Made by a program: the position numbers and the translations under genes. This document shows, piece after piece, positions 18,592 to 46,291 of a DNA stretch of 64,000 bases (its first letter is position 1; each line of letters starts with the position of its first letter). The DNA is taken from positions 62,001 through 126,000 of the forward strand of contig JAFSRX010000024.1 in NCBI GenBank assembly GCA_017445905.1, written 5' to 3'. The notes under the pieces are model-generated. The model was not told the origin of the DNA, did not search any database, and was given only the letters and a program-made list of their open reading frames with translations. This DNA comes from Eubacterium sp. (GTDB taxonomy: Bacteria; Bacillota; Clostridia; Oscillospirales; Acutalibacteraceae).

Positions 18592-18658
18592 AAATAAAAA
18601 ACCGCAGGATAAACCTGCGAATTTCTTATTTATACTTTCTTTTACGAGCTGCTTCGCT
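18592..18658. repeat. Direct copy of the rpsU 3' end and terminator
   Basis: These 67 bases match 18795-18861 (3' end of rpsU plus its terminator) with one mismatch, at an offset of 203 bases. This copy is not part of an intact gene. On the minus strand it follows directly after the repeat core at 18659-18765, the same placement as the tRNA acceptor copy in the units at 45.7-46.3 kb. Confidence 0.8.
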
Positions 18659-18781
18659 TCGTCGGAACAAACTCCGTGATTGAAGCATTTTGCAAGCAAA
18701 ATACTAATAATCACTTCGATTGTTCCTCCTCTCCCCAAAAAATCTTGCGATTTTTTGGGGACCCCAGAAGAGCAAAGCAGC
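18659..18781 (-). repeat. Two-hairpin repeat core with inverted copy of rpsU 3' sequence
   Basis: Read on the minus strand, a 16-base inverted copy of rpsU (18766-18781, one mismatch to 18851-18866) is followed by a core at 18659-18765. The core has hairpin 1 (CCCCAAAAAATC / GATTTTTTGGGG), then GAGAGGAGGAACAA, then hairpin 2 built on GTGATT...AATCAC and ATTTTGC/GCAAAAT, and ends CCGACGA. The same core occurs three times behind tRNA-Ser at 45.8-46.3 kb. A possible reading frame crosses it but appears to be a by-product of the rpsU copy. Confidence 0.75.
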
Positions 18782-18800
18782 ACATCATAAACAAAAATAA

Positions 18801-18832
18801 AAAACCGCAGGATAAACCTGCGATTTTCTTAT
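18801..18832 (-). terminator. rpsU terminator
   Basis: CGCAGG / CCTGCG with an AT loop, followed on the minus strand by a long T run. It lies directly after the rpsU stop codon and is duplicated with the rpsU 3' end at 18.6 kb. Confidence 0.75.
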
Positions 18833-19005
18833 TTATACTTTCTTTTACGAGCTGCTTCGCTCTTCTTTTTACGAGCAACAGAAGGCTTTTCGTAATGCTC
18901 TCTCTTTCTTACTTCCTGGATGATGCCATCGCGTGAAGTCTGACGCTTAAATCTTCTGAGTGCGCTGTCGAGAGATTCATTCTCTTTAACTCTTACCTGA
19001 CTCAT
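18829..19005 (-). CDS. rpsU: 30S ribosomal protein bS21
   Basis: A 58-residue basic protein starting [18 protein letters not shown] and ending RKRKYK, the complete bS21 pattern. It binds the 30S platform next to the anti-Shine-Dalgarno end of 16S rRNA. The ATG at 19003-19005 is fixed by GGAGGG just upstream; longer in-frame versions lack support. Its 3' end is the source of both direct and inverted copies in the repeat that follows it. The gene itself is intact. Confidence 0.95.
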
Positions 19006-45630: not shown

Positions 45631-45723
45631 GGAGAGTTGTCCGAGCTGGCCGAAGGAGCACGATTGGAAATCGTGTAACGGGCTACAACCTGTTCGAGGG
45701 TTCGAATCCCTTGCTCTCCGCCA
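45631..45723 (+). tRNA. tRNA-Ser (anticodon GGA)
   Basis: Folding by eye gives a class II tRNA. The acceptor GGAGAGT pairs with GCTCTCC (one T-G wobble) and is followed by discriminator G and an encoded CCA. The anticodon stem CACGA/TCGTG encloses loop TTGGAAA with anticodon GGA (reads UCC and UCU). A long variable arm and TTCGAAT T-loop follow. The 3' end is copied, both directly and inverted, in the tandem units that follow. The phage block ends just upstream. Confidence 0.95.
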
Positions 45724-46291
45724 AAACAAAAAGCACTGCCAATGGCGGTGCTTTTTTTGGAGAGCAAGGGATTCGAATAAAATGGGGACCCCCAAAAATC
45801 CAAAGATTTGTGGGGAGAGGAGAAACAAATGAAGTGATTGTTAGTATTTTGTTAAGCAAAATGCTTTAATCACGTAATTTGATTGGACGAGCTCTCCGCC
45901 AAAACAAAAAGCACTGCCGACGGCGGTGCTTTTTTTGGAGAGCAAGGGATTCGGATAAAATGGGGACCCCCAAAAATCCAAAGATTTTTGGGGAGAGGAG
46001 AAACAAATGAAGTGATTGTTAGCATTTTGTTAAGCAAAATGCTTTAATCACGTAATTTGATTGGACGAGCTCTCTGCCAAAACAAAAAGCACTGCCGACG
46101 GCGGTGCTTTTTTTGGAGAGCAAGGGATTCGGATAAAATGGGGACCCCCAAAAATTCAAAGATTTTTGGGGAGAGGAGAAACAAATGAAGTGATTGTTAG
46201 TATTTTGTTAGGCAAAATGCTTTAATCACGTAATTTGATTGGACGAGCTCTCCGCCAAAACAAAAAGCACTGCCGACGGCGGTGCTTTTTT
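45723..46291. repeat. 178-bp tandem repeat array behind tRNA-Ser (three full units plus a partial)
   Basis: Units begin at 45723, 45901, 46079 and 46257, exactly 178 bases apart. The last ends after its terminator. Each unit contains: the tRNA terminator; an inverted copy of the tRNA T-arm/acceptor end (19/19 in unit 1, 18/19 in units 2 and 3; at 45759-45777, 45937-45955 and 46115-46133); GGGGACCCCC with hairpin 1 (CCCCAAAAATC / GATTTTTGGGG); GAGAGGAGAAACAA; hairpin 2 (GTGATT...AATCAC around ATTTTG/CAAAAT); GGACGA; and a direct ten-base copy of the acceptor end (GCTCTCCGCC, one T variant). No protein gene is evident. Confidence 0.9.
45731..45758 (+). terminator. tRNA-Ser terminator
   Basis: AAGCACTGCC pairs with GGCGGTGCTT around AAT, followed by a run of T. 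The hairpin is repeated in every unit at 178-base spacing, with loop GAC in place of AAT in later copies. Confidence 0.88.

What the first reader, a model, noticed from the sequence alone, without database searches (positions are those of the whole stretch)
45723..46291. 178-bp units carrying an inverted copy of the tRNA-Ser 3' end and a conserved two-hairpin core, in perfect tandem
Seen directly: the period is exactly 178 bases over three units, with only scattered substitutions. Each unit contains terminator, inverted tRNA 3' end (19/19 in unit 1), core with two hairpins, and a direct copy of the acceptor end. Simple tandem duplication does not explain the inverted copy. A readthrough transcript could fold so that the tRNA T-arm/acceptor pairs with its inverted copy across the terminator, or act as antisense to tRNA-Ser. 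Inference: this may be a mobile structured element that captures the 3' end of its target gene, or a regulatory RNA array.
Basis: partly seen in the sequence, partly recalled or inferred. Interest (0 to 1): 0.85.

Follow-up and report, generated by a model that had tools for sequence, protein, structure and literature searches.

The report
Small cassettes that rebuild gene ends
Three tandem repeats behind a transfer-RNA gene belong to a widespread family of tiny DNA elements in gut and rumen bacteria that often sit inside the ends of conserved genes, carry a spare copy of the gene end so that the gene stays whole, and carry a short inverted copy of the insertion point that may act as an address label.

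Summary
In detail: three 178-bp units (172-174 of 178 identical) follow tRNA-Ser, with a 19/19 inverted copy of its 3' end. The core, hairpin 1 - GAGAGGA - hairpin 2 - GACGA, is a covarying element found in many Oscillospirales-type genomes. In 150 pooled copies, 50 have the sequence after GACGA (Q) repeated upstream (2 expected), in 38 of 50 from the first base on. Sites include tRNAs, rpsI, rpsU, 5S rRNA and parS. The order is gene - terminator - inverted segment - core - Q, so the gene stays intact. The inverted segment is specific to its own junction (mean rank 2.6 of 28; 1.5 of 7) and spans about -8 to +6. Two unrelated scaffolds share this layout. In 15 of 27 loci the upstream terminator is no more like the downstream one than chance although Q matches, which suggests an imported cassette. 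My best reading is a non-autonomous, site-specific cassette whose inverted segment is a guide, in logic like IS608. Mobility, guide function and enzyme are inferred: reverse transcriptase and IS110 are missing from the six richest genomes. Two thirds of pooled copies show no captured gene end.

The parts
45631..45723 (+). tRNA-Ser (GGA), the gene whose 3' end is restored and copied
   Evidence: ARAGORN
45723..45900 (+). unit 1 (178 bp)
45728..45758 (+). unit 1 intrinsic terminator hairpin (T1)
   Evidence: sequence
45759..45778 (+). unit 1 inverted segment X', reverse complement of the tRNA 3' part; 19/19 at 45759-45777
45789..45815 (+). unit 1 hairpin 1 of the core
   Evidence: a hairpin at this place in 160 of 163 pooled copies
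45815..45822 (+). conserved GAGAGGAG between the hairpins
   Evidence: alignment
45824..45884 (+). unit 1 hairpin 2 of the core, three stacked stems with covariation
45886..45890 (+). conserved GACGA, right end of the core
   Evidence: invariant in the 19-row alignment
45891..45900 (+). direct copy of the acceptor end (Q)
45901..46078 (+). unit 2
46079..46256 (+). unit 3
46247..46291 (+). last direct acceptor copy and last terminator
18829..19005 (-). rpsU, intact upstream of a second element
   Evidence: relatives
18795..18861 (-). upstream (functional) copy of rpsU 3' end and terminator
   Evidence: identity 0.99 over 67 to the downstream copy
18766..18783 (-). inverted segment X' at rpsU
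18659..18733 (-). core from GAGAGG to GACGA at rpsU (hairpin 1 lies at about 18734-18765)
18592..18658 (-). downstream direct copy of the rpsU 3' end and terminator

Best explanation
The array is three copies of a site-specific, non-autonomous mobile cassette. One cassette reads: copy of the target gene's end (Q), terminator, inverted segment X', hairpin 1, GAGAGGA, hairpin 2, GACGA. It sits between P and Q of a conserved gene and so leaves an intact gene upstream and a redundant Q downstream. X' is complementary to about -8 to +6 around the P|Q junction, which is both the left end of the inserted cassette and the empty target. I infer that X' is a guide that pairs with this junction to set left-end cleavage and target choice, like the guide 5' of each subterminal hairpin in IS608, but three to four times longer. 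Shown: anatomy, precise right ends, junction-specific complementarity, three scaffolds, tandem arrays, mismatched terminators. Inferred: mobility itself, single-strand chemistry, guide function, the enzyme. The three near-identical units most likely arose by tandem amplification through the repeated Q-terminator stretch.
For: Right flank repeated upstream in 50 of 150 copies against 2 expected; the repeat starts at the first base after GACGA in 38 of the 50 and within 3 bases in 49. Inverted segment ranks its own junction at mean 2.6 of 28 (14.5 expected) and 1.5 of 7 (4 expected) among junctions of the same class. Two other scaffolds have the same order and local inverted segments: el2 at seven tRNA sites (weak at L029 and L207, rank 6) and el3 at L115 and L065, with L156 at a contig edge. 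Terminators: null identity 0.61, 95th percentile 0.72; 15 of 27 loci lie at or below 0.72 although Q is 79-100% identical. Mismatches of X' with its junction: 10 of G.T type, 2 of A.C type, 11 transversions; G.T against A.C gives two-sided binomial about 0.04, worked out by hand. Hairpin 2: 94.3% of cells paired in 93 sequences, 484 double changes against 147 shuffled. Empty sites: 24 of 28 readable rpsU loci of the genus show no element. tRNA proximity 36 of 150 against 7.2. IS608 facts from passages of PMC5934647.
Against: 100 of 150 copies show neither direct copy nor a clear inverted segment. Not every direct copy is a captured gene end: in L194 and L162 the upstream copy follows another core, and in L148, L186 and L168 it is a neighbouring tRNA gene. 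No enzyme found: Y1_Tnp is in 19 of 37 genus genomes, not in element-rich G029 and G034, and 27 sampled Y1 loci carry no significant core match. In 9 of 27 loci the two terminators match at 0.78 or better, 0.98 in L118, which looks like local duplication. X' spans both sides of the cut, whereas IS608's left guide pairs with the left flank. No complementarity between GAGAGGA and GACGA is evident by eye. Strand bias expected for lagging-strand insertion was not seen: 52 of 92, p 0.25, weak proxy. Long X' matches in tRNA loci are partly the conserved T-arm. Mobility was not observed directly.
Confidence: 0.42

Rival explanations
1. The inverted segment is a by-product, not a guide. The core inserts right end first at P|Q, repair synthesis copies Q and the terminator (a long target duplication), and snap-back or template switching copies the junction in reverse before joining the core.
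For: Long near-identical duplications in L118 (64 bases, 1.0), L217 (51, 1.0), L004 (67, 0.99). Inverted scores of 10 or more in 21 of 30 loci with a terminator-like hairpin (null 11%) and in 4 of 15 classed without, all four of which do have a terminator by eye. In several tRNA loci the inverted arm runs colinear almost to the terminator.
Against: At rpsI the segment is centred on the junction and lacks about 25-30 nt next to the terminator. el2 at L086 has it with no terminator between. Several older loci keep long exact matches, and G.T mismatches are favoured. Unrelated terminators with matching Q do not follow from duplication plus drift.
Confidence: 0.22
2. An RNA-level retroelement: the transcript 5'-X'-core-GACGA-3' pairs with the junction as an intron's internal guide does and is copied at a nick (reverse splicing or target-primed reverse transcription).
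For: Guide at the 5' side and fixed 3' end; order rc(Q)-rc(P) like an intron internal guide (recalled); duplications of differing length; wobble-type mismatches.
Against: RVT_1 occurs in 9 of 37 genus genomes and in none of the six richest in core hits (G000, G002, G034, G029, G005, G007); G028 with 11 hits has one. No Rfam match at gathering score in the window, and only tRNA in L029, L065 and L115. The core is far smaller than group I or II introns (recalled). Only 3 of 163 copies lack hairpin 1, so no 5' truncation.
Confidence: 0.15
3. Ordinary segmental duplication spread by homologous recombination between alleles of conserved genes; the core is a passive repeat.
For: Tandem arrays and allelic import could explain differing terminators; genus-level patchiness.
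Against: Same exact sites in distinct genes and species, three unrelated scaffolds with the same layout, junction-specific inverted segments; recombination inside an 18-nt Q seems unlikely.
Confidence: 0.13
4. A regulatory RNA array that acts in cis or as antisense on tRNA-Ser.
For: Complementarity to the tRNA 3' half; terminator readthrough would place both on one transcript; G.T-type mismatches.
Against: The same cassette sits behind rpsI, rpsU, 5S and several tRNAs in patchy fashion; 24 of 28 readable rpsU loci of the genus lack it. Two thirds of cores have no complementary gene junction.
Confidence: 0.06

Closest known systems
IS200/IS605 single-strand transposons, in particular IS608, and non-autonomous derivatives
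   Same: Two subterminal hairpins, short unpaired stretches 5' of each hairpin, fixed 3' end, target set by base pairing with DNA just 5' of the left hairpin (passages of PMC5934647).
   Different: No transposase linked; pairing is about 14 nt and spans both sides of the junction instead of 4 nt; the block carries a copy of the target gene's end and a terminator; scaffold varies.
REP / CGTC-tagged palindromes (Di Nocera et al. 2013, PMC3733652)
   Same: Reverse complement of the core starts TCGTC next to a hairpin; head-to-head dimers; no flanking transposase for CGTC repeats (abstract and passages).
   Different: CGTC repeats have 8-9 bp stems and are listed there for five phyla that do not include Firmicutes; here about 110 nt, two hairpins, captured gene end and junction copy.
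Integrative elements that restore tRNA 3' ends (recalled, tyrosine-integrase islands)
   Same: Insert in tRNA 3' parts and bring a replacement 3' end.
   Different: About 0.18 kb, no integrase in the unit, inverted junction copy, also in rpsI, rpsU, 5S and parS.
IS110 bridge RNA, TnpB omega RNA
   Same: Structured non-coding part with target complementarity (recalled).
   Different: IS110 only in G021 of 37 genus genomes; TnpB zinc ribbon in 7 of 37 at E 0.001, over the cut-off only in G027 and, weakly, element-rich G034; layout differs.

Membership tests
IS200/IS605-type element or its MITE | Y1 HUH transposase linked to or co-occurring with the ends | tested here: not met
   Y1_Tnp in 19 of 37 genus genomes, absent at E 0.001 from element-rich G029 and G034; in 12 + 15 sampled Y1 loci only one match, 9.8 bits at E 1.5
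IS200/IS605-type element or its MITE | Guide 5' of each subterminal hairpin pairs with its cleavage site | tested here: inconclusive
   Left side: X' pairs with the P|Q junction in 30 of 49 rows. Right side: no pairing of GAGAGGA with GACGA seen by eye
IS200/IS605-type element or its MITE | Insertion without target duplication | tested here: inconclusive
   If the block is counted from P|Q to GACGA there is none, but 9 of 27 loci look duplicated
IS200/IS605-type element or its MITE | Active strand on the lagging-strand template | tested here: inconclusive
   GC-skew proxy 52 of 92, p 0.25; 22 of 35 with stronger skew, p 0.18
RAYT-mobilised REP | Repeat flanks a RAYT gene | tested here: not met
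   No significant core in sampled RAYT-like loci; one G000 RAYT (L301) is flanked by another repeat
Retroelement with target-primed reverse transcription | Reverse transcriptase in the host | tested here: not met
   RVT_1 in 9 of 37 genus genomes, none of the six richest in core hits; draft genomes, so not proof of absence
IS110 with bridge RNA | IS110 recombinase | tested here: not met
   1 of 37 genus genomes, G021, which has no core hit
TnpB omega-RNA element | TnpB nuclease | tested here: not met
   7 of 37 at E 0.001; 2 over cut-off: G027, which has no core hit, and G034 at 28 bits
Known Rfam RNA family | Match at gathering score | tested here: not met
   Window none; L029, L115, L065 only tRNA. 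Below the threshold searches list only low matches that I take as chance
Integrative element restoring a tRNA | Replacement 3' end carried by the element | tested here: inconclusive
   Upstream gene end intact with own terminator; terminators at or below the null 95th percentile in 15 of 27 loci, clearly alike in 8 to 9

The most novel reading that the evidence does not exclude
A natural class of guide-addressed cassettes: each tiny element carries a roughly 14-nt address complementary to one conserved gene junction plus a spare end for that gene, uses interchangeable scaffolds, and can re-enter the same regenerated junction again and again, building arrays without harm to essential genes.
Probability: 0.38. 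Interest if true: 0.92.

Novelty: new variant of a known kind. Interest (0 to 1): 0.77.

Why it matters
If right, parasitic DNA of about 180 bp can live inside essential, universally conserved genes without cost, because it replaces the piece it displaces. The engineered extended targeting of IS608 (PMC5934647) would have a natural counterpart with long guides. It would point to an unknown enzyme in common gut and rumen bacteria that inserts DNA at sites named by base pairing, and it would explain inverted gene-end copies that otherwise look like assembly noise.

Tried and rejected
Rejected: simple tandem duplication alone (does not give the inverted copy or the same layout at other genes). 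Rejected by my own check: L165 first looked as if X' came from a foreign tRNA (note); a pattern search and alignment showed a colinear, diverged local arm, so I withdrew it. Weakened: terminator snap-back (see rivals). Candidate enzymes reverse transcriptase, IS110, TnpB and Y1/RAYT were tested and not linked. Larger elements: in 100 of the 106 species-collection loci (up to 8 kb) the paired cores seen lie within about 350 bases of each other; I did not annotate the genes around them. Vehicles: no exact pattern match in the viral contig collection, one partial 47-nt match in phages, none in plasmids. Orientation bias: none. Literature: nine searches were answered and no listing named this element; I saw abstract and passages of PMC3733652 and passages only of PMC5934647 and PMC8266576. 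Open-licence papers only, so prior description cannot be excluded.

Rows dropped: pattern matches 183, of which 163 had enough flank, 150 after merging near-identical right flanks. Junction analyses use 48 rows with score 13 or more and a start within 3 bases, 45 after three long segments were set aside; 27 of them, tRNA, rpsI or rpsU. In one search, 19 rows come from the direct-copy filter and 9 el2/el3 rows were added by hand; the window array itself was not in that set. In one search, 42 rows come from the filter (window included) and 7 were added by hand. The 93-row alignment used 80 loci of my choice, with GC-rich members mostly left out.

Full report
Observation. The array is as described. 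TRF gives 45713-46291 with period 178, the three units differ at 4-6 of 178 positions, and the inverted copy of the tRNA 3' end is 19/19 in unit 1. Shuffled flanks gave at most 11 (2000 shuffles). A second copy sits behind rpsU on the minus strand.

The core is a dispersed element. The first unit as DNA query gives 30 matches in the home genome. A covariance model of GAGAGGA-hairpin 2-GACGA finds 41 full-length hits at E 1e-11 or better there, and 22 weaker partial hits, which look like the opposite strand of the same hairpins. In 60 genomes (the home genome, 36 same-genus relatives and 23 genomes of other families) 21 have hits, all in the genus, with stricter filters. No exact pattern match occurs in the viral contigs.

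Structure. In 19 aligned copies 95.2% of cells pair and 17 of 24 pairs change on both sides. In 93 copies from 80 loci of my choice 94.3% pair with 484 double changes against 147 in shuffles; that alignment was fitted to the model and leans to the structure, but the first was a MAFFT alignment. A hairpin 1 is present next to GAGAGGA in 160 of 163 copies, with several unrelated sequences.

Insertion sites. I pooled 150 distinct copies. The sequence right of GACGA recurs in the 600 bases upstream in 50 (score 12; 2 expected from mismatched pairs); the repeat begins at the first base after GACGA in 38 of the 50 and within 3 bases in 49. A few of the 50 have other causes: L194 and L162 follow another core, and L148, L186 and L168 resemble a neighbouring tRNA gene. 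Recognisable targets are tRNA genes (many at GTTC|R of the T-loop; some at the T-stem end as in the window; antisense in the D-arm of tRNA-Thr), rpsI, rpsU, 5S rRNA and parS-like palindromes (gene names other than the ARAGORN tRNAs are my reading of the sequences). Cores lie within 150 bp of an intact tRNA in 36 of 150 cases against 7.2 at random positions, and in 19 of 67 against 1.9 in loci of 5 kb or more. Target and hairpin-1 type are associated (p 0.001 in 40 classified copies, not corrected for relatedness). Among solo copies 49 of 125 have the direct copy, among head-to-head copies 1 of 20, and among one composite repeat 0 of 5.

The inverted segment. In the direct-copy class 17 of 50 have right-flank complement just left of hairpin 1 at score 6 (2.7 expected); in the others 8 of 100 (5.5 expected). 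Using the full junction, 30 of 49 rows (27 of 42 cores, 3 of 7 other scaffolds) reach score 9 with median span -7.5 to +6. The segment prefers its own junction to other junctions of the same class: mean own score 10.4 against 6.7 and mean rank 2.6 of 28 for tRNA; 14.1 against 8.8 and mean rank 1.5 of 7 for rpsI, where species differ at codons next to the junction. Among 23 mismatches 10 are G.T type, 2 A.C type and 11 transversions; the G.T excess hints that pairing is kept, but the sample is small.

Other scaffolds. Two further sequences unrelated to the core show the same order. el2 occurs at seven tRNA sites (L029, L030 twice, L170, L164, L086, L207), with an inverted copy of the first bases of the local Q, weak in L029 and L207. 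el3 occurs at tRNA sites in L115 and L065 with about 13-14 nt spanning the junction; a third copy, L156, lies at a contig edge so its upstream gene is not seen. Stretches with short matches (28-36 nt) to el3 lie beside rpsI in L061, L138 and L229. At L029 and L115 an el2 or el3 unit and a core unit stand in series, each with its own terminator.

Duplication or cassette. If the upstream piece were a plain target duplication, the two terminators should match as well as Q. In 27 loci I compared them: Q is 79-100% identical throughout, but terminator identity is at or below the null 95th percentile (0.72) in 15, 0.74-0.78 in 4 and 0.80 or more in 8. L115, L153 and L233 have identical Q and unrelated terminators; L118 and L053 have nearly identical terminators. 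So some units look locally made and many look imported. At rpsU, 24 of 28 readable loci of the genus show no element in up to 230 bases after the stop codon (one of them is cut at 38 bases), while G000, G007, G026 and G031 have it. One of the 24, G006, keeps an inverted stretch without core (L253).

Enzyme. RVT_1 occurs in 9 of 37 genus genomes and in none of the six richest in core hits, G000, G002, G034, G029, G005 and G007; G028, with 11 hits, has one. Transposase_20 occurs in 1 of 37. The TnpB zinc ribbon reaches E 0.001 in 7 of 37 and the cut-off in 2, G027 and element-rich G034 at 28 bits. Y1_Tnp occurs in 19 of 37, but 27 sampled Y1 loci gave one match of 9.8 bits. These are drafts, and the enzyme is unknown.

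Mechanism. In IS608 the cleavage sites pair with guides 5' of the subterminal hairpins, and lengthening that pairing makes the target specific (passages of PMC5934647). The core has the same order: X', hairpin 1, GAGAGGA, hairpin 2, GACGA. Read so, the mobile block runs from P|Q to GACGA, X' names its left junction and the empty site, and the carried Q-terminator keeps the gene whole. This fits precise ends, junction specificity, differing terminators and arrays. It is inference; the lack of strand bias (52 of 92), the unidentified enzyme and the many copies without captured gene ends weigh against it.

Verdict. A real, widespread family whose gene-end class has an unusual architecture. I rate it a new variant of small non-autonomous mobile elements, with a fair chance that it is a new class of guide-addressed cassette.

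Noticed in passing
L301 1120-1878 (-), home genome: A RAYT-like Y1 transposase gene flanked by copies of a different palindrome, GGTACAGGGGACGGTTCTCTGTACC, which also occurs elsewhere in the genome.
   Followed up: partly
L005, L006, L008, L011-L016, L018, L019: Near-identical cores embedded in a larger mosaic repeat (right side GGCGGACGAATAG or GGCGRACTAAAGCC), many at contig ends; probably moved as part of another repeat.
   Followed up: partly
L020, L022, L025, L071, L173, L185, L196: Head-to-head pairs of two different cores with a recurring pair of hairpin-1 types, GACGA outward, without captured gene ends.
   Followed up: partly
L253 (relative G006), downstream of rpsU: An inverted rpsU junction stretch without any core, perhaps a scar.
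   Followed up: no
L168, L178, L179, L188, L203: Cores whose GACGA end abuts the 3' end of a tRNA gene within 1-2 bases in antisense.
   Followed up: no
L179 and L139: Matches on contigs binned as Patescibacteria and Bacteroidales; L139 lacks hairpin 1. Binning error or transfer not checked.
   Followed up: no
L021, L099, L193: Cores next to parS-like palindromes (TGTTTCACGTGAAACA or close), which are duplicated (the name parS is recalled).
   Followed up: partly
L028: The right flank resembles the 5' part of a tRNA-Leu gene (read by eye).
   Followed up: no
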